Positions 9,331 through 29,413 of a stretch of DNA of 64,000 bases are shown here, in pieces; position 1 is the stretch's first letter, and every line of letters begins with the position of its first letter. The DNA is taken from assembly GCF_026240635.1 (NCBI RefSeq), contig NZ_CP110848.1, forward strand, positions 1,862,501-1,926,500, read 5' to 3'. The stretch comes from Trichothermofontia sichuanensis B231 (GTDB lineage: Bacteria; Cyanobacteriota; Cyanobacteriia; B231). Below the pieces are notes generated by a model, which saw only the letters and a program-made list of their open reading frames with translations, was not told the DNA's origin and searched no databases. Made by a program: the position numbers and the translations under genes.

Positions 9331-9642
9331 AACAGAACCTGCGATCGGCTAGTAATCATCAGCTTCAGGGTCTCACGCTTCAGGGTCTCACGCTTCCGAC
9401 CTCACCTAATGTCTCATGACACTGGCCCCTGCGGGTACCTCAATTCAGAAGGATTGGGGTCGCTGTACTGCCCGATCGTCGGCGCTGACTTGGCTGAGCA
9501 GCCCCCAAAACGATGCGCCTGCGGAGATGCTAAGGAACGTGCTGGTTTAACCAACTAGCGAGTTAACTCGCAGTACACTGGGAACACCCCTTCCGAAACA
9601 ATGCACATTCGTTTGTCCTACGGAGATACTACGCGAACAGTT
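9331..9642. other. Divergent promoter region, ABC transporter / Ycf49 pair
   Basis: About 310 bases between divergent genes. A 15-base phrase ending in CTTCAGGGTCTCACG occurs twice near 9361-9391. No RNA gene or riboswitch was recognised; promoters for both directions must lie here but cannot be placed with confidence. Confidence 0.5.
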
Positions 9643-9951
9643 ATGCATATCCTTTCCATCCCCACCTGGATCATTCATATTTCCAGTGTGATCGAGTGGA
9701 CTGCCGCAATCTGGCTCGTTTGGGTCTACGCCGATTTAAGTGGCAATGGGGCATGGCGGCTTTTAGCCCTGGCCATGTTGCCCGCCCTGATCAGCGCCAT
9801 GTGTGCCTGTACCTGGCACTTTTTTGACAATACACCCACCCTAGAATGGCTCGTTACCCTCCAGGCCAGCACCACCGTCCTAGGAAATACCACCCTCCTG
9901 CTAGCCGCCTGGGTGCTATGGAAAACCCGTAAGCTGGAGCTAGAACCATGA
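9643..9951 (+). CDS. Ycf49-like protein (DUF2499)
   Basis: A 102-residue membrane protein with about three hydrophobic segments. The conserved opening MHILSIPTWIIHISSVIEW and the phrase MLPALISAMCACTWHFFDN identify the Ycf49/DUF2499 family of cyanobacteria and plastids, whose function is unknown. An ATG at 9601 would add 14 residues unlike the family, so ATG 9643 is preferred. It overlaps the next gene by four bases (ATGA), indicating translational coupling with the DUF3593 protein. Confidence 0.85.
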   Translation: MHILSIPTWIIHISSVIEWTAAIWLVWVYADLSGNGAWRLLALAMLPALISAMCACTWHFFDNTPTLEWLVTLQASTTVLGNTTLLLAAWVLWKTRKLELEP

Positions 9952-10283
9952 TTCCCCCTGTTGATACCCTGGCCCAACTGACGTTACCCTCCAAAGACAC
10001 TCTGTTTGCGGTCTCCCTATTTCCCTACCTGGGCTTTCTCTGGTTTCTGACCCGATCGCGACAAGTTCCCCGCTTAGCCTTAATTGGGTTTTACACCACC
10101 CTCATTTTTGTCGGCGTGACGATTCCAGCCGGGATTTACGCCAGAGTTGTCTACCATGAAGCCCTGGCCAACGTAGACTGGTTACATGGGAGTGCAGAAG
10201 TGTTTCTCACCCTGGCTAATATCCTGATTGTGCTGGGGTTCCGCCAGGCGGTGCTTGCCCAACGTACCCGCCAGTTGGATTGA
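9948..10283 (+). CDS. DUF3593 membrane protein
   Basis: A 111-residue protein with three predicted membrane segments (about residues 17-34, 42-65 and 80-100) and the conserved phrases LFAVSLFPYLGFLWFL and DWLHGSAEVFLTLANILIV. It belongs to a cyanobacterium/plastid family of unknown function that commonly sits beside the Ycf49-like gene, as here with a four-base overlap. The two small proteins may form a complex in the thylakoid or plasma membrane; this is inference from linkage. Confidence 0.8.
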   Translation: MIPPVDTLAQLTLPSKDTLFAVSLFPYLGFLWFLTRSRQVPRLALIGFYTTLIFVGVTIPAGIYARVVYHEALANVDWLHGSAEVFLTLANILIVLGFRQAVLAQRTRQLD

Positions 10284-10365
10284 CCCTGAATTCCCTGATC
10301 GCGCCGCGTCTCATTTGAGAAGGGGCCTGTGCGATCGACCTTGCCAATGCGGGAGGAAGCTGGTT

Positions 10366-11379
10366 TTGCCCTATCCTCAAGTCCTTTGCCTCGGTGAAGT
10401 CTTGTTCGATTACTTAGCCGATGTCCCCCTGGAGACGCTACCAAACCCGCCTGATGCGGCTTTGCCGGTGGTAAAAAGTTGGACGGCCTATGCTGGGGGC
10501 GCACCGGCTAATGTGGCCTGTGGTCTGGTCAAGTTGGGGACAGCGGCAGGGTTTATTGGTTGTGTGGGGATGGATGTCGGCGGGGAAGTGCTGGTGCAGA
10601 TCCTGGCGACGGCGGGGGTGGATCTGACGGGGGTACAGCGTCATCCGGAATTGCCCACCCGTCAGGTTTATGTGCTGCGATCGACCACCGGGGAACGCTA
10701 TTTTGCTGGATTTGGTGACCATCAAGCGGCAGATGCCTTTGCCGATACGGCCCTCCAGGCAGACGCCCTGCCCGTTGCCCTCTTTGCCCAGGCCCAATAT
10801 CTTGTTCTGGGAACCCTGATGTTGGCCTATCCTACCAGTCGCCAAGCGGTTCAGCGTGCCCTGGCTTTAGCCCAAACCCACCAGTTAACCGTGGTTCTGG
10901 ATGTGAATTGGCGGCCCCAGTTCTGGCCCGATCCCTCAATGGCGATGTCCCACATTCGGGCCGCGATCGCCCAGGCGACTTTCCTCAAACTTGCCGATGA
11001 CGAAGCCGAGTGGCTGTTTCAAACCCGTGATCCAGGCGCGATCGCGGCCCAGTTTCCTAACCTGCATGGCGTTTTGCTCACCCAGGGAGACCAAGGCTGT
11101 CGGTACTGGATTCGTGGCCATCAGGATCACTATCCCGCCTTCCCTGTCGCTGTTGTCGATACCACTGGGGCAGGCGATAGTTTTGTCGCCGCCTTTGTCC
11201 ATCAACTGTGCCAGAGTCAGGGACAGTGTCTGGCGACGGCTGAGCGTATCCAGGCCACGATCGCCTACGCTAATAGTGTCGGTGCCCTTAGCACAACGCA
11301 ACCGGGTGCGATCGCGGCCCAACCCACTGCAACCGCTGTCCGTAGCTTCCTTCAGCACCAAGCCCAGCTTTTATCCTAG
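10366..11379 (+). CDS. PfkB-family carbohydrate kinase (fructokinase-like)
   Basis: A cytoplasmic sugar kinase of the ribokinase fold. GGAPANVACGLVKLG near residue 45 is the substrate/lid motif, and DTTGAGDSFVAAF near residue 263 is the C-terminal signature with the catalytic Asp and anion hole. The start is placed at TTG 10366 because GGGAGGA lies about eight bases upstream and the translation then begins PYPQVLCLGEVLFD, as in family members; the longer frame upstream overlaps the previous gene. About 337 residues. Its last four bases overlap the stop of the convergent HD-GYP gene. Confidence 0.9.
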   Translation: MPYPQVLCLGEVLFDYLADVPLETLPNPPDAALPVVKSWTAYAGGAPANVACGLVKLGTAAGFIGCVGMDVGGEVLVQILATAGVDLTGVQRHPELPTRQVYVLRSTTGERYFAGFGDHQAADAFADTALQADALPVALFAQAQYLVLGTLMLAYPTSRQAVQRALALAQTHQLTVVLDVNWRPQFWPDPSMAMSHIRAAIAQATFLKLADDEAEWLFQTRDPGAIAAQFPNLHGVLLTQGDQGCRYWIRGHQDHYPAFPVAVVDTTGAGDSFVAAFVHQLCQSQGQCLATAERIQATIAYANSVGALSTTQPGAIAAQPTATAVRSFLQHQAQLLS

Positions 11380-14538: not shown

Positions 14539-17500
14539 CTATTCCGGCAGCAGACACTTATCCGAGTCACAGCCTGCTGGACCAGCTTCGGTGAGATACC
14601 CGGAGTCGTGGCGACGGAGGGCGGCGTGGAAGTCGTCGGTTTGTCGCCGTTGGTGCACTTCCGCCAACATGCGATCGTAGGTTTCTTTGGTAATTGGCTC
14701 AAACGGTAGGCGTGGGAAGGTTTGCAGGTCATCAAAGCGGGCCAATAGGGCAGCAGAAATATACCCTTCGCCGTTTTGGATGGCCGCGTAAATGCGCTTA
14801 CCCAGGCTCTCAATCTCCGGCTCCCGCAGTTCGATCGTGGCACTGGTATTATGGGTGGTCCAATGGCGCTGGACTTGCATATAGAAGTCAAATTGCGCCA
14901 AGGCAGAAAATTTGGAAATATCGATCGCATCGGCTCCCGGCAGATTCGCCCAAGACACCTCCACGGGTAACTCCACCAGCCACTCGCTACACCGCGGATC
15001 AAAGGGATCGTTCAAGAGATTGCCATTTTCGTCCTTGTCCGACTGGGAAGGAATGACGCTGTAGCCGCAATCCAGACAGGCCAGGGCAACCGGATCGTTT
15101 TTGCGGAAGGTGATCCGCCGGATAAAGCGTTGGGCCTTGGGCGGATGCCAACCGGGGGATGCCCCCGTGAGTAATGACTTAGTTCCGGCAGGTTGGACGG
15201 TGGTACAGCGGTTGGGGCGTTTCAAACCGTGGCGATCGCAGTAGTCCCACACGGTTTCATGCACGACTTGCCGCCAACGGGTCAGGTATGCCTGTTCCTG
15301 TTGCCGGAATTCTAAACCGGTGGGGGTATCCGGGCGACCAGCCTCCCACCAGCGTAACCACTCAATGCCGAAGGCGGTGACGAAAAAGTCGAACAGTCCC
15401 GTAAAGGAAACGCCGACGATCGGGTCTAATTGCCGACTGAATTGATAGCGCGGTTCTTGGAATTGGTGATTCAGTAATATCGCAACCGATAAAGCACCGG
15501 CTGTAAATGCTTCTTTTTGTTCGTCTAAATCCTGGGGATCTAACTGATTGAGATGGATCTCTGATAAATTACAGTGAAAATCCGAGCCGATCACTTCACC
15601 GCATGGGTTGAGGCCATAGCGCTGCAACCGATGTGAAAGCTCATCTTCTGACATCTCTGGTTTGTAGTGCCGCAGCCAGTTTTTTGCCTCTGCGGCACCC
15701 AGGGAGGTATAGACTTCTAGAAATTCCTGCTTGAGTTCAGGGGTGGGCAGCAAATCGATATTGGCACGGGCGATCGCTTCAGGGGCATATTGAATCGCAC
15801 CTTCGCCGGAATAAAACTGTTTTCGTACTGCTTCAATGCACTCTGTTTCTGTTGGCTTGTGGTGAAACACACGGGTATGGTTGGCCATACGCAGGGCGTC
15901 CCGTTCCGGATCAATGCGCCAATTCCCCGCCTCATCCTGTTGCCACAGGTTAGCCTTGGCATTGGCAAAGGCTTCGTCTTCACTGGCCCCTTGACGCATC
16001 CCCGCACTGTTGTGCATCAGATAACCATCACAGTAAAAACAGTGGGCATCCTCGACCTCAATATCGTAAGTCTGAACGTAGTCATGGCTGCCTAATTCTT
16101 TTACTGTTACGGGAATATCAAGACTAACCTCAGCTTCAGCAATATACCTCTCGTAATTGGCAGCCACGCTTCGGGAACCTTCAAAACCCATTTCCCGCAT
16201 TTGGCTATAGGTATAGGTTTCCCGCATCATGGTTGCAGGAATTGTAAAGCCATGCGTTTTCTGGCCTTGATGGATCTTCCCCTTCAAGGAATAGGGCACA
16301 ACGAGACTGTTGTAGCGAGCCTTAAAAGCTGGTAATTTGAGGTTGTATTTGAGTTGCCAATGCTCTTTTTGGGGGAGTGTGACGCCGATTCGAATAGCAA
16401 TCCCCAGGCTAGATAGGAGAGCGCTAACTTGACGAGCAAAGTTAGGATATACAGTCGTTAACAGGCAAGGTGGCCGCCCACAGGCAGAGCCGTCGCTATC
16501 CATTAGACCGGCTAAGTAAGCGCAACGCACCTCAACGGTTCCTTGCAAGATAAAGCTGGGGACTTCTAAGGGTTGTTTGGGTTGCTTAATATAGCGGTGA
16601 AAGTATTCTGCAAGACGAATAGAGGTTACTCGCGATCGCAAGGTATTCTCACCTTCGATGCATTCTTGGCTGGCTTGTACATCAAAGAGGGCAAGAGCAC
16701 GGTTGATTTTGGTATGAATCTGCTGAGCAAACTCGGAATCTAAACTGTTGTAAGTCCAACAAATGCTACCAAAGGGTTTGTTGTACTTATTGCGTCCCAA
16801 GCTGACATACCCATCCCCGTGGGTAAAGCCAATTAACCAAGCAACATCAGCCGTCAGTTCTGGAATGGTAATTGCTTGAGAAGTATGGCTACCGCGTGGT
16901 CGAGAATCGGTAAAGTCTGATGGCAAATGAGTAACCGTACCAGGTAAGACTTGAGTATTGTGAAGCAGGCGATCGCCCTCGTTTAAGGCATTGAGAAATT
17001 TCCAGCGAATTCCCCCTGAGACATCCACAAGAGTCGCAATTCGATGGTTTAGGGTAGCTCGCAGCAATGGACCATTTGTTATTACTTCATAGGTCTCTTG
17101 GTAACCTTGGTTAAATTTCTGAGTTACTCGCCGAAACCCTAGGGGTGTTTGCACCCAGTCCCCTACTTGGATGTCTTTAATAGGGATCAGTCCCTTGCTC
17201 GTGTGTACCAAAGCATCCTCAGGCAAACAACGCCTGACGTTGCCAGCAACAACGACAACGGCAGCCTCGTCAATGAGCAAACAACACTCAACGGAGGTGA
17301 GTTGACGACCGACGGCCTTATTCAGAATTTGGGCACAGCGGCGATACATATCCGGCAACTTAATCGGATTGGCTACCCCCCCAAAGCCGCGCAAGGGTTC
17401 GCCAGTTGGCCGCACATTGCTCAAGTCAACGATTACTTCAATTTCTCCACTAAAGCGATCGTCGGTTGAGAGTTCTAGTAGGGATTGGTAGGACTTGACC

Positions 17501-18051
17501 CAACCCTGGCGACTGTCGCCAACAGTGATCACAACCTGGTTGCCCGTGATGGTAATGTCGGTCTGTTCCCGGCGATCGCCTACGGGAACACTGCCTACCT
17601 CCCCCTGCACCTTAACCCGGAGCGTATTCCGAATCGACGGCAGCTTTTCAATATATTTTGGTTCCAACACCGCCCCTGTACCACAGCCCATCATCGCCAG
17701 GTCCATCATCAGGCCAAAGGCTCGCCAGTCGATGACATTGGTGCTGGTGCAGTTGTAGGCCCCGGAGAAATTTTCCGGTTGCTTGATCCAGTTCGTCCCC
17801 CCCACCCAGAGCCAGCGGCCAGAGGGCAGGGCGTGAATGGCCCGTTGCTGTCGGTTCAACAGGGCAATTTCTTCGGGAGTGAGACCACCCAATTCGGTCA
17901 ACCCCCGGAGTGTGCGATCGCAAACCTCATCCCAGGACTCACGCTCCCCGTCCTGTTTACGACTGTAGGTGCGGTAAAACACAGGATTGGCGGTCGGAGC
18001 CGTTGAAGGAAATCCGGCGGCTGCGTGAGGGCGCTCTAGCTCTTGAACCAT
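14539..18051 (-). CDS. nrdJ: Class II (adenosylcobalamin-dependent) ribonucleotide reductase with intein
   Basis: Reduces ribonucleotides to deoxyribonucleotides using adenosylcobalamin. The 1170-residue precursor consists of a 274-residue N-extein, a 407-residue intein and a 489-residue C-extein; the spliced enzyme is 763 residues, the size of the monomeric RTPR type. Visible motifs are GAYNCTSTNV (one of the redox Cys), LNPCGEVIGSDFHCNLSEIHL (thiyl-radical Cys and neighbours), QPAGTKSLLTGASPGWH, and a C-terminal Cys pair in GCDSDKC. ATG 18051 follows TAGGAG at good spacing; the longer frame to 18144 lacks family similarity. No cobalamin riboswitch pattern was seen in the 170 bases upstream. 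Confidence 0.95.
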   Translation of the reverse strand: MVQELERPHAAAGFPSTAPTANPVFYRTYSRKQDGERESWDEVCDRTLRGLTELGGLTPEEIALLNRQQRAIHALPSGRWLWVGGTNWIKQPENFSGAYNCTSTNVIDWRAFGLMMDLAMMGCGTGAVLEPKYIEKLPSIRNTLRVKVQGEVGSVPVGDRREQTDITITGNQVVITVGDSRQGWVKSYQSLLELSTDDRFSGEIEVIVDLSNVRPTGEPLRGFGGVANPIKLPDMYRRCAQILNKAVGRQLTSVECCLLIDEAAVVVVAGNVRRCLPEDALVHTSKGLIPIKDIQVGDWVQTPLGFRRVTQKFNQGYQETYEVITNGPLLRATLNHRIATLVDVSGGIRWKFLNALNEGDRLLHNTQVLPGTVTHLPSDFTDSRPRGSHTSQAITIPELTADVAWLIGFTHGDGYVSLGRNKYNKPFGSICWTYNSLDSEFAQQIHTKINRALALFDVQASQECIEGENTLRSRVTSIRLAEYFHRYIKQPKQPLEVPSFILQGTVEVRCAYLAGLMDSDGSACGRPPCLLTTVYPNFARQVSALLSSLGIAIRIGVTLPQKEHWQLKYNLKLPAFKARYNSLVVPYSLKGKIHQGQKTHGFTIPATMMRETYTYSQMREMGFEGSRSVAANYERYIAEAEVSLDIPVTVKELGSHDYVQTYDIEVEDAHCFYCDGYLMHNSAGMRQGASEDEAFANAKANLWQQDEAGNWRIDPERDALRMANHTRVFHHKPTETECIEAVRKQFYSGEGAIQYAPEAIARANIDLLPTPELKQEFLEVYTSLGAAEAKNWLRHYKPEMSEDELSHRLQRYGLNPCGEVIGSDFHCNLSEIHLNQLDPQDLDEQKEAFTAGALSVAILLNHQFQEPRYQFSRQLDPIVGVSFTGLFDFFVTAFGIEWLRWWEAGRPDTPTGLEFRQQEQAYLTRWRQVVHETVWDYCDRHGLKRPNRCTTVQPAGTKSLLTGASPGWHPPKAQRFIRRITFRKNDPVALACLDCGYSVIPSQSDKDENGNLLNDPFDPRCSEWLVELPVEVSWANLPGADAIDISKFSALAQFDFYMQVQRHWTTHNTSATIELREPEIESLGKRIYAAIQNGEGYISAALLARFDDLQTFPRLPFEPITKETYDRMLAEVHQRRQTDDFHAALRRHDSGYLTEAGPAGCDSDKCLLPE
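16009..17229 (-). other. Intein with LAGLIDADG homing endonuclease inside nrdJ
   Basis: Encodes 407 residues. The first residue is Cys (CLPEDALVHTSKG), the block B region is ATLNHRI with conserved His, and the C-terminal end is CDGYLMHN with penultimate His and terminal Asn, followed by extein Ser (SAGMRQG). The two endonuclease motifs are LIGFTHGDG and LAGLMDSDGSA, each with an acidic residue, so the homing domain looks intact. Insertion is in the highly conserved NVRR/SAGMRQG site. All residues needed for standard protein splicing are present. Confidence 0.95.
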
Positions 18052-18222
18052 GATCACTGCTCCTAGGGGGTGTTGTGGGTAAAATGGCCGGTACGACGCT
18101 ATCGATAGAGTGTCTATCCTATCGCAGACAGACGCTGGCAGCATCCCCCCCAGCGGTTAAAGATTCATTGGCGTGTTGGTGTCGTTTAGTTTTCGGGACA
18201 TCGGTACTTCCCAGCCCCGGTG

Positions 18223-19898: not shown

Positions 19899-20532
19899 TT
19901 TCCCCAGCGAGTCGGGATTCAAGAGAACGGTAAGTTCTCTGAATAAAGATTTCCCCGTTTCCCTTGAATTAGTTTCCCCAGCGAGTGGGGACTAGAGAAC
20001 TTTGTAAATTTACTGTGCCGATCCGCATATCGGATCGGGTTTCCATTCAATTAGTTTCCCCAGCGAGTGGGGACTTTGTGCAACTGCACTATTGGTGATC
20101 TGAGCAACAAGTTTCCATTCAATTAGTTTCCCCAGCGAGTGGGGACAAAATTTACCCGACGCCAAAACAAGCTGCAATTTTAGAGTTTCCATTCAATTAG
20201 TTTCCCCAGCGAGTGGGGACTTTAGCCTGCGCGATCGCATTACCTTACAACAATCCCTGTTTCCATTCAATTAGTTTCCCCAGCGAGTGGGGACTGTAAT
20301 TCTGCCGTTGTCCGAAAGATCGACGATTCCGGTTTCCATTCAATTAGTTTCCCCAGCGAGTGGGGACGGAGTCGGGTACTTGCTGGTCCTTGGCGAACGT
20401 TTGGGATGTTTCCATTCAATTAGTTTCCCCAGCGAGTGGGGACAGTGGGGACGCAATCAGGCTGGCCCCGACGATCGTTGCCCCAGGACTGCTGTCGTTT
20501 CCATTCAATTAGTTTCCCCAGCGAGTGGGGAC
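19883..20532 (-). CRISPR. CRISPR array, 9 repeats of 36 bases, 8 spacers
   Basis: Repeats start at 19883, 19957, 20039, 20111, 20185, 20259, 20332, 20408 and 20497. On the plus strand each begins GTTTCCATTC and ends GCGAGTGGGGAC. The seven from 20039 on are identical; the repeat at 19957 has two changes and that at 19883 four, so the low-coordinate side is the trailer. The reverse-strand repeat forms a small hairpin (TCCCCA/TGGGGA, loop CTCGC) and ends in GAATGGAAAC, the usual 5'-handle side, so transcription is leftward from the cas side. Spacers are 36-40 bases except 46 (19993-20038) and 53 (20444-20496). No spacer target was seen by eye in the window. Confidence 0.97.
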
Positions 20533-20719: not shown

Positions 20720-20998
20720 TTAGACAATAATCGAACTGGGCGCTTGCGTCAGCGGTACCCCACCCCAAACTTCCACTTGGCTCAGCGTATGGCCTGACAG
20801 CGGATAAAACCGCACCGAATCCTCATCTAGATTCACCCGTTTGCGTAATCGTTGCCGCAATTCATCATACTTTGCTGCCGATAACAAACACTCAAATACA
20901 CTATACTGTACTCGTCGTCCATATCCCTCCAACAAGTCTGATACCCGTTGGCGACGCTTATTACAGGGAATATCATAAGCCACCACATAGAGCAGCAT
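20720..20998 (-). CDS. cas2: CRISPR-associated endoribonuclease Cas2
   Basis: 92 residues, normal for Cas2. It opens MLLYVVAYDIPCNKRRQRV with the conserved Asp of the ferredoxin-like fold, then LLEGYGRRVQYSVFEC, and ends VRFYPLSGHTLSQVEVWG. As a dimer it bridges two Cas1 dimers in the spacer integration complex. It starts eight bases after the cas1 stop on the same strand and is followed directly by leader and array. Confidence 0.95.
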   Translation of the reverse strand: MLLYVVAYDIPCNKRRQRVSDLLEGYGRRVQYSVFECLLSAAKYDELRQRLRKRVNLDEDSVRFYPLSGHTLSQVEVWGGVPLTQAPSSIIV

Positions 20999-21006
20999 AA
21001 ACTTAC

Positions 21007-21999
21007 CTACCGAATTAAATATGGCTCATAGCCCAGCCCTGGATTATAGACAAACTGCTTATACATCTTTACCTGTTGATTCAACAAATCCCAACGCGGT
21101 TGTCGCTCGCCAGAACGCACCTGCACCTTCTCCTCCATGCGCTGCACAAACGCCTGCAAAAATTTCTTCCGTCCCGACTCCCCCAAAAAACAGCCTCCAT
21201 CCCGAAACTCAAAATCTGCTTCTGCATCCATCACCCGACTATTGACTAGCCATAACACCAGCGAATCAATCAACGGTGCCCGAAATTCCTCCAACAAATC
21301 CGATGCCAAGGCCGCATGACGCTCACTCCCCTCGTGCAAACAGCCATAGTACGGGTCTAGCCCCTGCAACTCAATCAACGACAGTAGATGGTTCCAGAGT
21401 ACCTGATAACCAAAACTGAGCATTGCATTTACTGCATTTCCTGGCGGACGCCGCGATCGTGCCATAAATGCAAAGTCTGGCGACGACAAACATTCCCCAA
21501 AGGCTGCAAAGTAACTAGCAGCCCCGGCCCCTTCCAACCCCATCAGCCGATCGGCCGAATCTGCCCGCATCGCCTCCTGTGCCAAATGGTCCAAGGTTTC
21601 GATCGCCAGCGCGATCGTTGGGGCCGCTACCCGTCGCTGTTGCCGTAACAACAACACCCGACCATTCTTCAGCTTTACCTGCACCAACCGCTGTGCCACC
21701 AGCAACCGCTCCAGCCGCGACAACCCCTGCTGGTAGCGTGCCAACTGCCGATAGCCCCGCGCGATCGCCAGCACCCGGCCATAGCAATAGCCCTGGCGCG
21801 AGAGATAGGCGATCGGGATCTCGCGCCAGAGACAGGCCCGAATCACCTGCGTCGTCGACTGCGACTTACCAAACACCAGGATTTGTTCGACTAGCAGCAA
21901 CTGCACCGACTGCAAAACAGTATCTCCCCGTTTTACCACCAGCGTCTCCTGGTGCAGCGACACATAACACCCCTGCTGCGACAGATAGAGCGTCAACAT
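21007..21999 (-). CDS. cas1: CRISPR-associated endonuclease Cas1
   Basis: 330 residues; the metal-dependent integrase of spacer acquisition. The N-terminal beta domain begins MLTLYLSQQGCYVSLHQETLVV. The catalytic helical domain contains LMGLEGAGAASYFAAF (Glu), YYGCLHEGSERHAALASDLLEEFRAPLID (His and Asp/Glu) and FLQAFVQRMEEKV near the C-terminus. All metal-binding residues expected in Cas1 are present, so the protein looks functional. Its 5' end lies in a locally duplicated segment (21988-22086), which places a decoy copy of the start upstream. Confidence 0.95.
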   Translation of the reverse strand: MLTLYLSQQGCYVSLHQETLVVKRGDTVLQSVQLLLVEQILVFGKSQSTTQVIRACLWREIPIAYLSRQGYCYGRVLAIARGYRQLARYQQGLSRLERLLVAQRLVQVKLKNGRVLLLRQQRRVAAPTIALAIETLDHLAQEAMRADSADRLMGLEGAGAASYFAAFGECLSSPDFAFMARSRRPPGNAVNAMLSFGYQVLWNHLLSLIELQGLDPYYGCLHEGSERHAALASDLLEEFRAPLIDSLVLWLVNSRVMDAEADFEFRDGGCFLGESGRKKFLQAFVQRMEEKVQVRSGERQPRWDLLNQQVKMYKQFVYNPGLGYEPYLIR

Positions 22000-22086
22000 T
22001 CCCTAGAACCGGTCTTAGAAGCATCTATTTCTTCAAGAATAGATGCTTCATTAGAGCGACCGATCGAGCGTCAACATTCCCTAGAA
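21988..22086. repeat. 21-base direct repeats around a hairpin at the cas1 start
   Basis: The same 21 bases occur at 21988-22008 and 22066-22086. On the minus strand they read TTCTAGGGAATG followed by the first cas1 codons. Between them lies a perfect hairpin, GAAGCATCTATT (22018-22029), an 8-base loop and AATAGATGCTTC (22038-22049), within an imperfect palindrome bounded by CGGTC and GACCG. The upstream copy encodes only an 8-residue decoy (MLTLDRSL) and also supplies the csx18 stop. Confidence 0.85.
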
Positions 22087-22371
22087 GCAGTTCCCCCGGT
22101 CCAGATCATGATCATCCCGGGTCTGGGCCAAATCCGATCGCGATTGCCCCAGCAACTCCGCCCGCTGCTCCGTCGGTTGTAAATAGCGCACCACCCGATC
22201 CGCCAGCGTCGCCGACACATAGGACGCCACCACCACCAGCAACGTATTGATGATCACCGCCATCAACCCCAACGGCGCAATAATCAAAATAATCCACGTC
22301 ATTACCCCATTTACCACCGCGACAAACAGATTACGCGCCCGCGTCAATCGTTTTGATAGGTACATACGCAT
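22081..22371 (-). CDS. csx18: CRISPR-associated membrane protein Csx18-like
   Basis: About 96 residues with two close hydrophobic helices (residues about 15-35 and 38-55: FVAVVNGVMTWIILIIAPLGLMAVIINTLLVVVASYV) and a charged C-terminal tail (QRAELLGQSRSDLAQTRDDH). The size, topology and position between a CARF effector and cas1 match Csx18 of cyanobacterial type III loci, whose role is unknown. ATG 22371 or the second ATG 22365 may be used; GAGG is better spaced for the second. The end overlaps the duplicated segment before cas1. Confidence 0.7.
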   Translation of the reverse strand: MRMYLSKRLTRARNLFVAVVNGVMTWIILIIAPLGLMAVIINTLLVVVASYVSATLADRVVRYLQPTEQRAELLGQSRSDLAQTRDDHDLDRGNCF

Positions 22372-22386
22372 TAACCTCGATAGTTG

Positions 22387-23670
22387 CTAAACACTTGCCA
22401 CCGCTTGCTTGAGCAATGCACATACTTGCTGATTTAAGCGATCGAAGGGATTCCCTGCCGCCAAACTCACCACAAACTGCATCGCCCGCCGCAAATTCGC
22501 CAACAGCGTCTCCGCATCCTCGATCGCTGACACCCCCACCAACTGATGCACCACCTCATTCCGGCGATCGCAATAGTCATTGATAGCCTTAATGGCCGAC
22601 ACCACCTCGCGAAAATCCGGAAAATAGTCCAGAATTGCTATCAACGTCAGCCGCGCGATCGCCTCCTCCGGCCCCACCCGCAACGACACCCCACTGGGTA
22701 AACGATACCCTTGCAGAAATCGATATAAATTGCCCTGATCAAACTGTCGAATCACCGCCCAAGCATCCGCCCGATCGCCATACTTAGTTGAGATCGCTAA
22801 CCCCGCGCGATTGGTCACCAAAAACCGAATCAAATTTTCATGCAGCCCCGATAAAACGACTAGAAACTCCGCATAACGCCCTAATTGCAACAAAATCAGC
22901 GCTTGGAAATAGGCATCTCGCAAAATTGCCGTCATCTCCTTCTGGCGCAGCGTCGCAATCTCCTGAAACCAGACCGGATCAACTGCATTCTTGACCGGCA
23001 CCAAAGCATTAAATGCCCGATCGAAATCCCGTACCTGGCGATAGTAACCATATTCCAATAAAGCCAGCGCGATCGGCGTTTGTAGATGACTTTCCTGAAG
23101 GCTAATAAATGCCCCCCGATAGTTGTAATCCTGAATCTGCTGCTGAATCACTTTGCAGTCAAACTCATCCCGTAACGGCGTCACATCCATCTGTAAGACC
23201 CGTTCCTGGTGCGGTCGCATTTGCTGGGGATCACGCACCTGCCAGACTCGGCTTCTGGGCGCATAGCCCGCCGCTTGCAGCAAACTCCAGGCCAACTTCA
23301 TCACCGGCGTTCCCGATGACGCATTAAACTCCAGACAATCCTCCGGAGCCAGGTAAGCCCGCGCCTCATCCAGAATCGCCGATCGGGCTGCCGGCGCCGC
23401 CAACAAAAGGTTCACTGGGTCCTCCGATAACCCCCGCTGCACCGGCACTAGCCGAATCCGCTCCGGGTCGAGCGCCAGTTCCGTACTGAGCCAAGTTTGG
23501 GTATCGATCGCACCCATCGCCGTTTCCTCGGTATAGAGCAGAATGACCCTCTTAATCACCTGTTGCTGCTGGAGGAGATGCTTGACCAAGGAAACGATCG
23601 AGCCTTCCGTATGGTTTTTATCCGAAAATGGGTCTTGTTTACCGACAAAAGAAAGCAGGATACTAGGCAT
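22387..23670 (-). CDS. CARF-HEPN protein (Csm6/Csx1-like, type III accessory RNase)
   Basis: About 427 residues. The N-terminal Rossmann-like region begins PSILLSFVGKQDPF and has the CARF ligand-loop phrase LEFNASSGTPVMKLAWSLL near residue 125, expected to bind cyclic oligoadenylate. The C-terminal helical half contains CDRRNEVVHQL, an R-x4-H HEPN ribonuclease motif. By family logic it is a non-specific RNase switched on by a Cas10 signal. Both ligand and catalytic motifs are intact, but no Cas10 gene remains in this locus. ATG 23670 is preferred over an in-frame TTG five codons upstream. It is followed by csx18 after 15 bases. Confidence 0.85.
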   Translation of the reverse strand: MPSILLSFVGKQDPFSDKNHTEGSIVSLVKHLLQQQQVIKRVILLYTEETAMGAIDTQTWLSTELALDPERIRLVPVQRGLSEDPVNLLLAAPAARSAILDEARAYLAPEDCLEFNASSGTPVMKLAWSLLQAAGYAPRSRVWQVRDPQQMRPHQERVLQMDVTPLRDEFDCKVIQQQIQDYNYRGAFISLQESHLQTPIALALLEYGYYRQVRDFDRAFNALVPVKNAVDPVWFQEIATLRQKEMTAILRDAYFQALILLQLGRYAEFLVVLSGLHENLIRFLVTNRAGLAISTKYGDRADAWAVIRQFDQGNLYRFLQGYRLPSGVSLRVGPEEAIARLTLIAILDYFPDFREVVSAIKAINDYCDRRNEVVHQLVGVSAIEDAETLLANLRRAMQFVVSLAAGNPFDRLNQQVCALLKQAVASV

Positions 23671-24075: not shown

Positions 24076-24187
24076 GGTTCTTCTGGGATTTTGGGGTAAG
24101 CAGTATCAGCAGCTACAAATAAACGATCGCAAATGCTGAGTTTATGGTGGGGGCGCGTAGCGCCCCCACCATAAACTCAGAAGAGCC
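24076..24187. repeat. Family A MITE-like element, copy 2
   Basis: 112 bases with ends GGTTCTTCTGGG and CAGAAGAGCC. The left half is identical to copy 1 over about 50 bases. The hairpin arms match copy 1, but the three-base loop reads GTA instead of TAC. Its right end overlaps the last codons of the truncated Uma2 gene at 24177-24458 and supplies the stop codon. Confidence 0.8.
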
Positions 24188-24458
24188 GCATTGATTTAAT
24201 TTTCAAGCCTAGTTCTACGGCTAAAAAGTAGATTAGCCGTCCAATTAATTCGGCAGCAAACTCATGAATCTCCAGTGGCATCGTAATTTCTAGTATCCCC
24301 CGGTCATAGGTTAGATGCGCATTACGACGTTCCCTCAAGGTATCCCGAATGGTCAAATAGTCCTGCCAGGTCAACTGTCGCAGGACAATCCGCCTTTCGC
24401 CGACGGGTAATGGGACCGGTTGGAGGACAAGGGGCGCGATCGGAGATAGTGTGCTCAT
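24177..24458 (-). pseudogene. Uma2-family gene truncated by a family A MITE
   Basis: The 93-residue frame reads MSTLSPIAPLVLQPVPLPVGERRIVLRQLTWQDYLTIRD and then HLTYDRGILEITMPLEIHEFAAELIGRLIYFLAVELGLKIKSM, the N-terminal half of a second Uma2 subgroup. Full proteins run to about 190 residues and carry the nuclease residues in the missing half. The final codons RLF-stop come from the MITE end (24177-24187). No continuation is seen beyond the element. Confidence 0.8.
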
Positions 24459-24687: not shown

Positions 24688-26709
24688 TCAGTTATAGGGA
24701 AAGATTTGTGCAAATTGGTGACAATCGCATCCTTGACGCAACCTATTTAGGTATTGCTGACGAGGATTTTGAGTGGCTCCAAATACTGTTACGACCTGAT
24801 AATCCCCCAAATCGGCAATCCAAACAGGTGAGGGCTTTACCTTGGCACCCAAAACCGCACCACAGAGGTCTGGATCATAGTTGCCGTTTTTCTTGAGTTC
24901 CTCACTGTGGAGCACGGCTAGGGCATAGGGCTTGCTAAAGTTGCTCTTGCCTGTGCAGACAACAATCTGACAGTTGGTATCAACGGCTTCTGTCCATTTA
25001 TCTTTTCTGACTTCACCTGGACGTTGAAGCTGATTTGGGTTGATAGTTTGATTAGTCAGTTTCCCTAATGCCTTATAAAAATCCTGTAAGCGTCGCTGAA
25101 ACAGTTTTTTGAACTCCTGAACCGTATCTGGCAACTCCCAAAACCCATCATCGCTCTCAGGACTGAGGGTGGAGCCACGCCACCAAGGGGCACGACCATT
25201 CTCTCGGTTTTGCCGAGAATAGCAAGGTCGCCTCGCTCCCTGACCAATGCCGCCTAGATGAAACATCAGCCAGGTTAAGTTCTGGCAGAGGGTTGCGACT
25301 GTTCGGTGTTGCTCCGGCGGTGTTTCCGTGGAATGGGCAAGAATCAGAGTGCCTGACTGCTCACCACAAGGGTCCTGTTTGCCCTGGGCGTTGGGACGGG
25401 CCTCCCGTTGAACAACACGACCATTGGTAATTCTCACCGTCAGGTAGCCTCTGGATTGGCGGGGAGTAATTGCACCAAAGAGGGTGCCTTCTAGTTGCTG
25501 CACGTCCCTAGACGGCAACACTCCCAACGCCAAGGCCCGGAACCAGTAGCGCAGCATAGACTTGAAGGCTACGGGACGCACTTCGGCATCTGGGTTGCCC
25601 CGCATTTGCCATTCATGGCGACGATCGTTCCAGTTCCACTGCGTAAACTTTTGCCGCCCATGAATCAGTTGCCCTTCCAAAGTGAAATCAACTCGGAAAA
25701 ACTCATTAGCGGCACTGGCGTGTCCTGCCCGTACCAGGCTGCCGTAGCCCGTATTTACCTGCGAGCCAATCCCTGCTTGTAGTCCCCGACTCAGCCATTG
25801 TTTGACCTGATCGATAATATCCGGATCACTCCCCGGCATGGGGCGAATCCCAATTAAGAATGTTGTTTCCGAGAGGGAGAAAAGGGGATTAGGATTAGGG
25901 GAATAGAGTAAATCGCGGCCAGCCGCATCCCACGACCAGATATTATTGGCCATGTCCACTGCTAAGCCGCCCCCATTGCCCGACTGCTGGGGCAGAGGAT
26001 AGGCATCTAAAAAAATTACCTTACCCGATCGCTCTTCGCGGTTCTCACTCCCTAAATAGCCAAAATACCGACGAGCGATGACTTCTTCAGCTTGTTGCCA
26101 GGATAGATTCTGCTCCGCCATTAGTTCCCGAATGGCCTGGGTACGGGCAACACCGCGTAGGGTACTAGAAGGAATATAGGGCATCCCCAAGGCATCAAAA
26201 GCAGGCAATAGGATACTTTCTGGCCCGCGATGGCCCCCCACTCGGATGCGCCACAGACATTTAGCCGGAAAAGTATTCCCTTCTCCTGCAATCAACTTTG
26301 TCCGATTCGTCAAGGTTATGAGGCGATCGCGATAATTGGCCTGCTCTTCTGCTATTTGCAAGATCTGGACTTTAGTGGGATCTTTGTAGGCGCTATCCGG
26401 CGATCGCATCCAGCGCAGATATTCCACAAAACTAGCCGTTGCATCTGGGTTAGGCGTGGGATCAAGCGGATGTTCTAGCCAAGGCGACGGAACCGGACGA
26501 TCGTGGCCACCCCCACCTTGTCCCCCCCCAGGATTCCTGCCGCCACCCCGATAGCCACCGCCTTGATCGCCACCCCGCCCACCTTGACGAGCCGTCGGTC
26601 TCTGAGGATCGCGATCAGGAGGTGCGGGTCGCTGGCCGGGTGTTTGAGGGCGTTGGGTAGCGGGTGATGGTTGCGCCTGTCCTGGGCGTTTCGGACGTTC
26701 AAAAACCAT
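24688..26709 (-). CDS. Cmr6-Cmr1-like fused RAMP protein
   Basis: A 673-residue type III effector subunit with two RAMP modules. Residues 1-75 are low-complexity Pro/Gly/Arg. Residues about 130-330 are Cmr6-like, with GMPYIPSSTLRGVAR and the glycine-rich loop AGIGSQVNTGYGSL (residues 312-325). Residues about 337-673 are Cmr1-like, with the arginine-rich start RPVAFKSMLRYWFRALALG, a GTLFG turn and GGIGQGARRPCYSRQN. Cmr6 and Cmr1 normally cap the same end of the Cmr backbone, so a covalent fusion is structurally sensible. It overlaps neither neighbour; the small helical subunit gene ends two bases upstream. Confidence 0.85.
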   Translation of the reverse strand: MVFERPKRPGQAQPSPATQRPQTPGQRPAPPDRDPQRPTARQGGRGGDQGGGYRGGGRNPGGGQGGGGHDRPVPSPWLEHPLDPTPNPDATASFVEYLRWMRSPDSAYKDPTKVQILQIAEEQANYRDRLITLTNRTKLIAGEGNTFPAKCLWRIRVGGHRGPESILLPAFDALGMPYIPSSTLRGVARTQAIRELMAEQNLSWQQAEEVIARRYFGYLGSENREERSGKVIFLDAYPLPQQSGNGGGLAVDMANNIWSWDAAGRDLLYSPNPNPLFSLSETTFLIGIRPMPGSDPDIIDQVKQWLSRGLQAGIGSQVNTGYGSLVRAGHASAANEFFRVDFTLEGQLIHGRQKFTQWNWNDRRHEWQMRGNPDAEVRPVAFKSMLRYWFRALALGVLPSRDVQQLEGTLFGAITPRQSRGYLTVRITNGRVVQREARPNAQGKQDPCGEQSGTLILAHSTETPPEQHRTVATLCQNLTWLMFHLGGIGQGARRPCYSRQNRENGRAPWWRGSTLSPESDDGFWELPDTVQEFKKLFQRRLQDFYKALGKLTNQTINPNQLQRPGEVRKDKWTEAVDTNCQIVVCTGKSNFSKPYALAVLHSEELKKNGNYDPDLCGAVLGAKVKPSPVWIADLGDYQVVTVFGATQNPRQQYLNRLRQGCDCHQFAQIFPYN

Positions 26710-26711
26710 GA

Positions 26712-27104
26712 CTATGCCTCTCCCTTAATATCGTGATAGACTGCCGTCGCCCAAAAACTGAATTCCTGCGCGATCGCTAACCCTAAGCCGGTTAAACCTA
26801 AGTATTCGTCTGTATCAAGATCTTTTAGGGTTTGTAAGCCCTGGTTCCCGGCTAAATGCGCTTGTCCAGAAATTTGCTCCAAACATTCAAAGAATTTCTT
26901 AACAACTTGCTTTTTACCTTCCTGACTGAGGGCTTGCTCTTCTGCTTTTAGACGCATCATCCCCCAAGTTGAGAGATAAGTATACAGTTCAACGGCCTGA
27001 TTTTTCTGCTCCTTCAATCGCGCCTCATCCTGGTTAGGTTGCGCCCGCAATTGGCTCAATGCTTCATAAACTGGCTTGCCCATTGTCCGTGGATCAAATC
27101 CCAT
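26712..27104 (-). CDS. Small helical type III subunit (Cmr5-like position)
   Basis: 130 residues, almost all helical and charged, with the conserved-looking ending LDTDEYLGLTGLGLAIAQEFSFWATAVYHDI. It sits between cmr4 and the Cmr6-Cmr1 fusion, the slot of the small subunit (Cmr5/Cas11) that lines the target RNA in type III-B complexes. Sequence similarity to classical Cmr5 is not obvious to me, so the assignment rests on size, fold class and position. Confidence 0.6.
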   Translation of the reverse strand: MGFDPRTMGKPVYEALSQLRAQPNQDEARLKEQKNQAVELYTYLSTWGMMRLKAEEQALSQEGKKQVVKKFFECLEQISGQAHLAGNQGLQTLKDLDTDEYLGLTGLGLAIAQEFSFWATAVYHDIKGEA

Positions 27105-27132: not shown

Positions 27133-27948
27133 CTACATCCAAATCTGCACAAAGCCCCGTCCTAAACCCTCCTGGCCCCCAATCTGGAGAATGGCGAGAT
27201 CGTCCGCTTGTAGCAATTGCTCAAACTTATCTTTCGGATCAGTTTTAGTATCCTTTGCCTTGCCATTAGTCTGGGAGGTCACCCCCCAGGGAAAATACAT
27301 TAGCGTATCCGGGGGAATTGCTTCTTCGTAGCGGAAGCCACCATTCACCGTTTTGTGCTCATCTAGCTTGACCTTCACCTGTCGCCACAGGCTCATCTGG
27401 ATCAACGTGGCACAATGCTGATCGGATAGCACAATCACCCGCTTGATGCTGCTAGTATGGCTCGATTGGGGAACAAATTGATGCCAATCGCTCCACGCAG
27501 TTAGCCTTTGCGGTTTCAAAATGGCATCTTTCAAATAGATAGGTTTACCCTTAGCAAGATCGGGATTGACAGCATACTGGCTGGCAGCATCCGGAATCGG
27601 AATTTGCAACTGCTTCAGTCTGGCCCAGCGTTGCAGCAACAGTGGGCAGCTAATCCAAACCACACCATGACTAAGGGAAGGCACCGGTAACCAGAGAATT
27701 GAGCCATCGCCAATCCAAATAGATCCCTGCTCCAGTTTATCGCCTGCATTGATTTCGTTGCCAAATAACCAATACTGTAAATCCCTTTCTGTCACATTGG
27801 CTCGTAATCTTCCCCGAATCGAACTAGAGGGAATGTAGGGCAACTCAGTATGGGATTCACGGGCGATGCCTAATAAATTCCCCTCCTGGGTAGTGCCACC
27901 CGTGTGCAGAGGAGACAGAAGGTAGAGATAAACCAAATTTCCAATCAT
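27133..27948 (-). CDS. cmr4: Type III-B RAMP protein Cmr4
   Basis: About 271 residues. It opens MIGNLVYLYLLSPLHTGGTTQEGNLLGIARESHTELPYIPSSSIRGRLRA, the standard Cmr4 start: SPLHTG, then the PYIPSSSIRG motif preceding the backbone thumb. It ends with the glycine-rich LQIGGQEGLGRGFVQI. Cmr4 forms the repeated backbone and carries the target-RNA cleavage site. ATG 27948 has GGAG at suitable distance and overlaps the stop of the upstream toxin remnant as ATGA, so translation was coupled to that gene. Confidence 0.9.
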   Translation of the reverse strand: MIGNLVYLYLLSPLHTGGTTQEGNLLGIARESHTELPYIPSSSIRGRLRANVTERDLQYWLFGNEINAGDKLEQGSIWIGDGSILWLPVPSLSHGVVWISCPLLLQRWARLKQLQIPIPDAASQYAVNPDLAKGKPIYLKDAILKPQRLTAWSDWHQFVPQSSHTSSIKRVIVLSDQHCATLIQMSLWRQVKVKLDEHKTVNGGFRYEEAIPPDTLMYFPWGVTSQTNGKAKDTKTDPKDKFEQLLQADDLAILQIGGQEGLGRGFVQIWM

Positions 27949-28131
27949 TGGCGTTCTCCACAATTTGAAATTTTAAAAATCTGTTTTAGCCCTGCAAGGA
28001 TGGGGGCATATTCCTCACTGGTCAAAGTACCAAGGTAGGCAACATCCGTTGCCTTGCTGCTCTCGGCCTTTAGGCTGTTGGTCTGGTAAAGCAACCAAAA
28101 TGATATCTCCAGGCGCGAGGGTATCAACCAA
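27945..28131 (-). pseudogene. PemK/MazF-type toxin remnant with internal deletion
   Basis: One frame reads LVDTLAPGDIILVALPDQQPKGREQQG, the N-terminal beta strands of a cyanobacterial PemK/MazF RNase toxin. A second frame reads TDVAYLGTLTSEEYAPILAGLKQIF, the C-terminal helix. About 60 residues between them, including the rest of the catalytic barrel, are missing and the join is out of frame. The final TGA overlaps the cmr4 ATG. The toxin cannot be functional. Confidence 0.8.
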
Positions 28132-28449
28132 GGAATTTTCCTCCTTCCACCACAAACCCACGACCAGGTATGTAATGAATTGGTTTTCCTGAAGGCATAC
28201 CCTGCTCACCCCACTCATACGGAGGTAGATCCTCGACTAACTCAGCCTCTAACCATCTATGCATTTCAGGATCTACATTTTCCATCGGCAAATCCGCAAT
28301 CGCTGCCAAAATTGCCGCTGGTGACTTCGCTGTTTGGGCTTCAAGGTGAGCCTCAATGACCACAGACACGTGAGTTCCTTCTGGCAAAGCATCGGTTGCA
28401 TCGGCTTTAGCACACCATCTTCATAAATAGCTTCGATCGTGAGGCTCAT
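28124..28449 (-). pseudogene. Frameshifted antitoxin (DUF104-type N-terminus)
   Basis: ATG 28449 starts MSLTIEAIYEDGVLKPMQPM, the signature of DUF104-type antitoxin proteins. Near 28388 the reading shifts by one base, continuing LPEGTHVSVVIEAHL and then AAILAAIADLPMENVDPEMHRWLEAELVEDLPPYEWGEQG to the stop at 28124. Apart from the shift the gene is full length. Its ATG overlaps the cmr3 stop as ATGA, and its end overlaps the toxin start, so the pair was embedded in the cmr operon. Confidence 0.8.
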
Positions 28450-28978
28450 GGGGTTTCTCCTTCAGGCGTTTCAATGGGTTGGTATGGAAGCCACAATAGC
28501 TCTGAGTAGCCCAGTTGGCGCATCCGTTGTGCCCGTGCGAGTGCCTTCCCTGGTTTCGCATCCGGATCGTCTGCATAGAGTGGTTGGGGATGTTCGAGAT
28601 AATAAACACTACCTGGGGGAGCCGCAAACACCTGGGGAGCCGGAATACTTTTCCCTGTGCCGTCCTTATCCTGAATACGACAACTAATCGGCACCGGTTT
28701 ATCGGTTGCTACGCCTACCAAATTCGGTTGTTTCCATTCCCACGGATAGGCACAGCAGCGGGCAGTATCGCGATCGCGCCCATCTTTGGATCTTTCCCGA
28801 TGAATGCGTTCAAAAATACCGGGCGTAATTAAGTACGCCAGACACCGTTTCACCTGTTGTCGCTGCTGCTCAGAAATCTGCCAAAGTTTTTGCCATTGTG
28901 TTTGCAGGGAGTCACAGCGATCGAGCACCGCGCGATGTCCTTCGCCACCTAAACGCAGGGTAACGGGTGTGGCAATCT
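28446..28978 (-). pseudogene. C-terminal fragment of cmr3
   Basis: The frame is open from about 28978 to 28446 and reads TLRLGGEGHRAVLDRCDSL, then CLAYLITPGIFERIHRE, WKQPNLVGVATDKPVPISC and FAAPPGSVYYLEHPQPLYAD. This is the second half of a Cmr3 RAMP protein (the LGGEG and PGSVYYLE motifs). About half of the protein is missing on the 5' side. Directly upstream the sequence switches to a WYL regulator read on the other strand. In type III-B complexes Cmr3 binds the crRNA 5' handle and docks Cas10, so its loss should disable assembly. Confidence 0.85.
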
Positions 28979-29413
28979 CTTAATTCAGATGGTTGGGGCC
29001 TCTACCTAGGTGAGCCAGAAGCCCAGCAGACCGAACTAGCAGGCCAATTGCCCCTTACCGAATTCAAGGTGCGTTTTTACCCCCCCGTTGCCGCCTTTAT
29101 CCTCGAAGGCGATCGCCGCCATCCCCGCCAACGCATCCGATGCGGCCCCCAGGATCAGCAAGGCCAAGTGAGCTATGTGGATTACACAGTCCCCCTCCCC
29201 GATCGCTCCTTTAATGAATTCAGCCGTTGGGTGAATCGCTTTCTGGGTCATGTACAAGTCCTCGCACCACCATCGTTGGTCACCGCCCATCGAGACGCGA
29301 TCACTGCACAAATGGCTCTATACAAGTCAGAAAATACGAGTAAGGAAAAGACCAGCAGCCCGCATCCCCCAATCCGTTCTCCCAAAAGCTCACCCTATGG
29401 TCAAGCCAAATAA
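28967..29413 (+). pseudogene. C-terminal fragment of a WYL-domain transcription regulator
   Basis: The frame reads SDGWGLYLGEPEAQQTELAGQLPLTEFKVRFYPPVAAFILEG, then VSYVDYTVPLPDRSFNEFSRWVNRFLGHVQVLAPPSLV, the WYL/WCX C-terminal part of regulators often divergently encoded beside cyanobacterial CRISPR operons. The N-terminal HTH and the WYL core are absent, with an in-frame stop just upstream at 28961. The last residues (PYGQAK-stop) are encoded by a family B MITE (29396-29512), so the 3' end is also altered. Confidence 0.8.

What the first reader, a model, noticed from the sequence alone, without database searches (positions are those of the whole stretch)
22387..23670. Intact CARF-HEPN effector left without its cyclic-oligoadenylate synthase
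The ligand-loop phrase SSGTPVM and the HEPN motif RNEVVH are both intact, although no Cas10 cyclase is in the locus. Selective retention suggests either very recent loss of cas10, activation by a second type III system in trans, or a new signal source.
Basis: partly seen in the sequence, partly recalled or inferred. Interest (0 to 1): 0.65.

Follow-up and report, generated by a model that had tools for sequence, protein, structure and literature searches.

The report
Csm6-type RNase orphaned by cas10 deletion
A cyanobacterial antiviral CRISPR operon recently lost, in one deletion, the gene that makes the alarm signal, but still carries the intact RNA-cutting enzyme that the signal switches on, and two other CRISPR systems in the same genome could supply that signal.

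Summary
Window 22387-23670(-) is an intact 427-residue CARF-HEPN protein (SSGTPVM, RNEVVH) in a type III-B locus with no cas10. Related loci show what happened. In cyanobacteria the gene sits in WYL(+)/cmr2/cmr3/cmr4/cmr5/cmr6-cmr1/CARF-HEPN/csx18/cas1/cas2. Here one deletion of about 4.9 kb joins mid-cmr3 to mid-WYL at about 28976, removing all of cmr2. It is recent: even the useless cmr3 and WYL stubs are undecayed (under about 2% neutral divergence). "Selective retention" is therefore not supported, because everything left is intact.

The cell is not signal-less. About 1.07 Mb away lie two Cas10 genes with GGDD in type III-D/III-B-like loci, with Card1-like, Csx1, TIGR02710 and Csx3 proteins. 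Activation in trans is the best functional reading, shown as possible but not shown to occur. It has a natural parallel: in Thermosynechococcus this effector stands alone at the galE site, intact in the two species with an unlinked Cas10 (dN/dS about 0.14-0.25) and broken in all five without.

Fold and profile place it nearest cA6-activated Csm6, whereas the trans loci look cA4-oriented, so ligand match is the open question. The enzyme family and the inter-locus idea are both published. New member of a known kind, moderate interest.

The parts
22387..23670 (-). Csm6-type CARF-HEPN ribonuclease, 427 aa; ligand motif SSGTPVM, HEPN motif RNEVVH
   Evidence: (PADLOC CARF1--CARF_HEPN PDLC01806, 502 bits)
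19957..20532 (+). CRISPR array, 36-nt repeat GTTTCCATTCAATTAGTTTCCCCAGCGAGTGGGGAC, 8 repeats found (7 exact, 1 with 2 mismatches); no other copy of this repeat in the genome at up to 3 mismatches
20720..20998 (-). cas2
21007..21999 (-). cas1
22081..22371 (-). csx18
   Evidence: NF040558, 98 bits, cut-off 50
24177..24458 (-). short ORF resembling a Uma2-family fragment, between CARF-HEPN and cmr6-1 (identified by eye)
   Evidence: not scanned against a family library
24688..26709 (-). cmr6-cmr1 fusion, 673 aa, intact; same fusion in G005, G049, G007
26712..27104 (-). cmr5, intact
   Evidence: 65% identical to the G005 gene at the same place
27133..27963 (-). cmr4, intact
28446..28976 (-). C-terminal part of cmr3 (about 176 residues); the N-terminal ~210-240 residues are deleted
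   Evidence: (PF09700 positions 241-365 of 367)
28970..28985 (.). deletion joint: cmr3 stub directly abuts WYL stub; cmr2 (cas10) and about 4.9 kb in all missing compared with G005 and G049
28976..29413 (+). C-terminal part of the WYL/WCX regulator that in relatives is divergent from cmr2; N-terminal ~280 residues deleted
   Evidence: (PF25583)

Best explanation
The gene encodes a Csm6-type RNase: a CARF domain that binds cyclic oligoadenylate switches on a HEPN domain that cuts RNA without sequence guidance. It was the cis effector of a cyanobacterial type III-B operon. One recent deletion removed the operon's regulator (N-terminal part), its Cas10/Cmr2 and half of Cmr3, so this locus can no longer build a surveillance complex or make the signal. 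The effector is still intact and, if expressed, can only be switched on in trans, most likely by one or both of the unlinked type III-D/III-B-like Cas10 cyclases about 1.07 Mb away. Shown by sequence: the protein family, the deletion and its recency, and two GGDD Cas10s in trans. Inferred: expression, ligand match and actual activation in trans.
For: Family and fold. Ancestral order WYL/cmr2/cmr3/cmr4/cmr5/cmr6-1/CARF/csx18/cas1/cas2 in many cyanobacteria, cmr2 with GGDD. Clean joint between mid-cmr3 and mid-WYL. No decay in the stubs: cmr3 0 of 39 and WYL 0 of 23 positions that are invariant in homologues are changed; simulation leaves 3.4% probability at 2% neutral divergence. Cas10s in trans with GGDD, plus Csx19, Card1-like, TIGR02221 Csx1, Csx3-AAA and TIGR02710. 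Precedent for trans use: in genus g28 (Thermosynechococcus) the effector is alone beside galE; the two species that carry it intact have an unlinked III-B Cas10 operon (in G111 with no CARF gene among its neighbours), and the five species with broken copies have no Cas10; NG86 dN 0.11 / dS 0.82 between the two intact copies. Over the class sample: 24 of 27 intact copies but 0 of 6 broken ones come with a real Cas10.
Against: The nearest solved relatives are cA6-activated Csm6, while Card1-like, Csx1 and Csx3 in the trans loci point to cA4; the trans Cas10s may not make enough of the right ring. The deletion also removed the probable operon promoter between WYL and cmr2, and no convincing promoter precedes the CARF gene (fewer hits than shuffled sequence), so it may be silent. 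Because the loss is so recent, intactness here is no evidence of use. The CARF shows 2 changes at 46 otherwise invariant positions (rank 23 of 24), both conservative. No CRISPR array was found in the 80 kb around the trans Cas10 loci, so their guide supply is unknown.
Confidence: 0.55

Rival explanations
1. The effector is a freshly orphaned gene with no current role: it has lost its cyclase, its complex and probably its promoter, and is intact only because decay has not yet set in.
For: Equal intactness of genes that cannot work, the cmr3 and WYL stubs; no promoter-like site; ligand type may not match the trans systems; homologues do decay where no Cas10 is left (G087).
Against: Two GGDD Cas10s remain in the genome, the condition under which Thermosynechococcus keeps the gene under purifying selection.
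Confidence: 0.38
2. The effector answers a signal not made by Cas10, such as a CBASS-like or unknown nucleotide.
For: Only that no Cas10 lies in the locus. Three draft assemblies (G225, G274, G277) hold an intact homologue with no Cas10 found.
Against: No SMODS CD-NTase in the genome. In G225 and G274 the contig ends inside the cmr operon. Every homologue with a long upstream flank and an intact frame, except the Thermosynechococcus stand-alone copies, sits next to a GGDD Cas10.
Confidence: 0.03
3. The missing cas10 is an assembly or collapse artefact.
For: Reads cannot be inspected here.
Against: Single-contig 4.44 Mb genome, 99.76% complete; the joint is base-clean between two homologous genes and no trace of this Cmr2 subfamily exists elsewhere in the genome.
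Confidence: 0.03

Closest known systems
Csm6 ribonucleases activated by cA6 (E. italicus Csm6, PDB 6TUG; S. thermophilus Csm6', PDB 8PCW/8PE3)
   Same: CARF plus HEPN order and length; fold match E=4e-12 to 6TUG; profile match E=3e-8 to Csm6' with the aligned motifs SSxTP and RNxxxH. The HEPN residues R372/N373/H377 and the CARF threonine T114 of EiCsm6 (PMC7101355) have counterparts here.
   Different: 16% identity; below the NCBIfam csm6 cut-off (64 of 150 bits). The position after SSGTP is V or A here, Q in the S. thermophilus protein; EiCsm6 uses Gln116 for cA6 contact (PMC7101355). Encoded with type III-B rather than III-A.
PADLOC cluster PDLC01806, CARF1--CARF_HEPN
   Same: Full-length match, 502 bits: this protein belongs to an already catalogued cluster.
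   Different: PADLOC's entry carries no description; no ligand assignment was seen here.
Inter-locus type III signalling (Hoikkala et al. 2024, PMC11229360)
   Same: Same idea of signal from one locus and effector from another; they report cyclase-positive loci without effectors being more often in genomes with several type III loci.
   Different: They start from cyclase loci without effectors. Here is the mirror case, an effector locus without cyclase, with an independent conservation/decay contrast.
Synechocystis 6803 CARF proteins SyCsx1 and SyCsm6 (PMC9676260)
   Same: Cyanobacterial type III CARF effectors with cA4 signalling and a Csx3 gene in the genome.
   Different: SyCsm6 is CARF fused to RelE; SyCsx1 is of the DxTHG Csx1 group. 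Neither is this family.

Membership tests
Csm6 (CARF-HEPN ribonuclease) | N-terminal CARF Rossmann fold with the ligand-loop motif | tested here: met
   SSGTPxMK nearly invariant in 21 homologues
Csm6 (CARF-HEPN ribonuclease) | C-terminal HEPN domain with R-x4-6-H | tested here: met
   R370-N371-E-V-V-H375, R/N/H invariant
Csm6 (CARF-HEPN ribonuclease) | Score above the NCBIfam TIGR02672 cut-off | tested here: not met
   64.4 of 150 bits; so described as Csm6-type, not filed as a TIGR02672 equivalog
Csm6 (CARF-HEPN ribonuclease) | RNase activity switched on by cA6 (definition used in PMC11229360) | not testable with these tools
   needs biochemistry; nearest structures are cA6-bound
Type III-B CRISPR-Cas (functional system) | Cas10/Cmr2 present | tested here: not met
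   absent from the locus; no relative of this Cmr2 anywhere in the genome
Type III-B CRISPR-Cas (functional system) | cmr3, cmr4, cmr5, cmr6, cmr1 present and whole | tested here: not met
   cmr4, cmr5 and cmr6-1 whole; cmr3 truncated
Inter-locus (trans) cOA signalling | Cas10 with intact GGDD elsewhere in the same genome | tested here: met
   two genes, 520 and 793 aa
Inter-locus (trans) cOA signalling | The ring made by the trans Cas10 is the ring the effector binds | not testable with these tools
   indirect evidence conflicts: effector near cA6 types, trans loci carry Card1-like, Csx1 and Csx3 proteins
CBASS | CD-NTase (SMODS) in the genome | tested here: not met
   no PF18144 match

The most novel reading that the evidence does not exclude
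The orphaned effector has been taken over by the heterologous III-D/III-B-like cyclases in trans, across subtypes and possibly across ring size (a cA6-type sensor reading a mainly cA4-making system), so that CRISPR signalling in such cells is a shared pool rather than a set of closed cis circuits.
Probability: 0.25. Interest if true: 0.6.

Novelty: new member of a known kind. Interest (0 to 1): 0.4.

Why it matters
Whether type III loci share their alarm signal between loci is an open proposal in the literature. This locus is a clean mirror case (effector kept, cyclase deleted, other cyclases present). The Thermosynechococcus series found on the way is a natural experiment: the same stand-alone effector at the same chromosomal site is intact when an unlinked Cas10 exists and broken when none does. 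That makes trans signalling directly testable with a defined effector and defined cyclases.

Tried and rejected
1) "Selective retention": rejected, since the stubs of cmr3 and WYL are just as intact. 2) CBASS cyclase: no PF18144 match. 3) The missing Cmr2 moved elsewhere: no match to a Cmr2 profile in the genome. 4) PF22335 hits taken at face value: rejected for G087, where the hit is a GGDEF/GGEEF protein; the E. coli control also rings, so weak hits were discounted (G274 treated as no Cas10). 5) The apparent stop in the G111 homologue lies outside the reading frame of the gene (449-codon open frame). 6) dN/dS for the window gene itself was not attempted: the nearest homologues are 53-56% identical and no other genome of its family appeared among those searched. 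7) Promoter scan gave nothing above chance. 8) Single-sequence genome contigs and PDB searches with the lone protein found nothing; alignments were needed. 9) The first multiple-alignment call failed on a frame error and was redone.

Full report
WHAT IS THERE. The window lies in a single-contig 4.44 Mb cyanobacterial genome, 99.76% complete; no other genome of its family appeared among the relatives searched. At 22387-23670 on the minus strand is an open gene of 427 codons. It scores 64 bits with NCBIfam csm6, under the cut-off of 150, and 502 bits with the PADLOC cluster CARF1--CARF_HEPN. Across 21 homologues the ligand loop SSGTPxMK and the HEPN residues R370, N371 and H375 are invariant or nearly so. 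The predicted structure is confident (pLDDT 91.6). Its nearest solved folds are E. italicus Csm6 with a cA6 analogue (E=4e-12), then S. thermophilus Csm6' with cA6, then T. thermophilus Csm6, which was solved with cA4. A profile search by sequence alone also puts Csm6' first (E=3e-8).

WHY THERE IS NO CAS10 IN THE LOCUS. In the relatives G005, G049 and G007 and in many named cyanobacterial loci, the gene order is WYL regulator (divergent), cmr2 with GGDD, cmr3, cmr4, cmr5, cmr6-cmr1, CARF-HEPN, csx18, cas1, cas2 (not every gene in every locus). A second group of relatives has a shorter Cas10, also with GGDD, at the same place. In the window the cmr3 reading frame begins at a point matching residue about 211 of the G007 protein (IATPVTLRLGGEGHRA). 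It abuts, with no spare bases, the WYL frame beginning at a point matching residue about 280 (SLNSDGWGLYLGEP). Compared with G005 and G049 about 4.9 kb are gone: the first part of cmr3, all of cmr2, the divergent promoter region and two thirds of the WYL gene. One deletion explains everything. No trace of this Cmr2 subfamily remains in the genome.

HOW RECENT. The cmr3 and WYL stubs cannot work, yet neither has an internal stop, and none of the 39 and 23 positions that are invariant in homologues is changed. A neutral simulation gives 19% probability for this at 1% divergence and 3.4% at 2%. The loss is therefore recent, below about 2% neutral divergence. It follows that the intactness of the CARF-HEPN gene cannot be read as selective retention: cmr4, cmr5, cmr6-1, csx18, cas1, cas2 and both stubs are intact too. 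If anything the CARF gene has slightly more unusual residues (2 of 46, both conservative).

SIGNAL SOURCES IN THE SAME CELL. At 2.936-2.966 Mb, about 1.07 Mb from the locus, the genome has a 520-aa Cas10d with GGDD followed by RAMP genes and csx19 (type III-D), then a 793-aa Cas10 with GGDD (Cmr2-like). Around them are a Card1-like CARF nuclease, a TIGR02221 Csx1, a Csx3-AAA ring-nuclease candidate and a TIGR02710 CARF-HEPN protein. There is no SMODS-type CD-NTase. Trans activation is therefore possible. From the literature, Card1/Can2, Csx1 and Csx3 are cA4 proteins (PMC11229360, PMC7371418), whereas the window protein is nearest to cA6-type Csm6. The match of ring size is the weak link; Cas10 enzymes can make rings of three to six units (PMC9676260).

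A NATURAL EXPERIMENT. In genus g28 (one member, G174, is titled uncultured Thermosynechococcus) the same family occurs as a stand-alone gene between galE and a conserved flank gene, far from any cas gene. It is intact in G111 and G146, whose single Cas10 lies 0.32 and 0.93 Mb away in an operon cmr2-3-4-5-6/1; in G111 no CARF gene was seen among that operon's neighbours, and in G146 none matched the CARF proteins used as queries. The two intact copies show dN 0.11 / dS 0.82 by NG86 and 0.13 / 0.50 by YN00, that is purifying selection. In G043, G029, G091, G174 and G208 the gene is broken or a fragment at the same site, and none has a Cas10 by PF22335. Two species have Cas10 but no effector (G057, G101) and two have neither (G139, G153). 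Among copies present, intact goes with Cas10 2 of 2 against 0 of 5 (hypergeometric 1/21, by hand). Over the whole sample, counting only real Cas10s, 24 of 27 intact copies and 0 of 6 broken copies have one (84/1107568, by hand, ignoring shared ancestry). The three exceptions (G225, G274, G277) are fragmented drafts; in two of them the contig ends inside the cmr operon. In G087 a truncated cmr2 and a split CARF gene occur together. The effector thus tends to be kept where some Cas10 exists and lost where none does, and linkage is not required.

READING. The window gene is a Csm6-type effector recently orphaned in cis. Best functional reading: available for activation in trans by the remaining Cas10s (about 0.55). 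Main rival: a gene that has just lost its job, and perhaps its promoter, and has not yet decayed (about 0.38; no promoter signal above chance). A new signal source is unsupported.

NOVELTY. The protein cluster is catalogued, Csm6 is well studied, and signalling between type III loci has been proposed (PMC11229360, section on inter-locus signalling). This is a new member of a known kind. What adds interest is the mirror-image arrangement and the Thermosynechococcus contrast; a paper search for Thermosynechococcus with Csm6 and type III CRISPR found none in the held library.

Noticed in passing
L131/L132 (G111, G146) and L025, L026, L133, L134, L155 (G043, G029, G091, G174, G208): Stand-alone CARF-HEPN gene beside galE in Thermosynechococcus-group genomes: intact with an unlinked Cas10, broken without one.
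   Followed up: yes
14539-18144 (-): A 1201-aa ORF looks like a ribonucleotide reductase interrupted by an intein (reading by eye; CLPEDALVH...YLMHNS).
   Followed up: no
L024, L067, L068, L070 (G049, Pseudanabaena and Spirulina MAGs): Homologues whose CARF half is 46-49% identical to the window protein but whose C-terminal half does not align, though it still has an RNxxxH motif: apparent exchange or fast divergence of the HEPN part.
   Followed up: partly
L140 (G087) 1158-2009 and 9144-11275: Independent case: cmr2 cut to its first ~290 residues and the CARF gene split by about 0.86 kb.
   Followed up: partly
28124-28387 (-): Small unknown gene between cmr3 and cmr4; a 37-residue similarity lies upstream of cmr4 in G005 (L020:17926-18036).
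   Followed up: no
G000:C1:775704-776567: A second-locus Cas1 lies in a 568-aa open frame, so it may be fused to another domain.
   Followed up: no
24688-26709 (-): cmr6 and cmr1 are one fused gene here and in several relatives; in L057 they lie in two adjacent frames.
   Followed up: partly
G000:C1:2906000-2985700: No CRISPR array found in the 80 kb around the two trans Cas10 genes, so they must take guides from elsewhere.
   Followed up: partly
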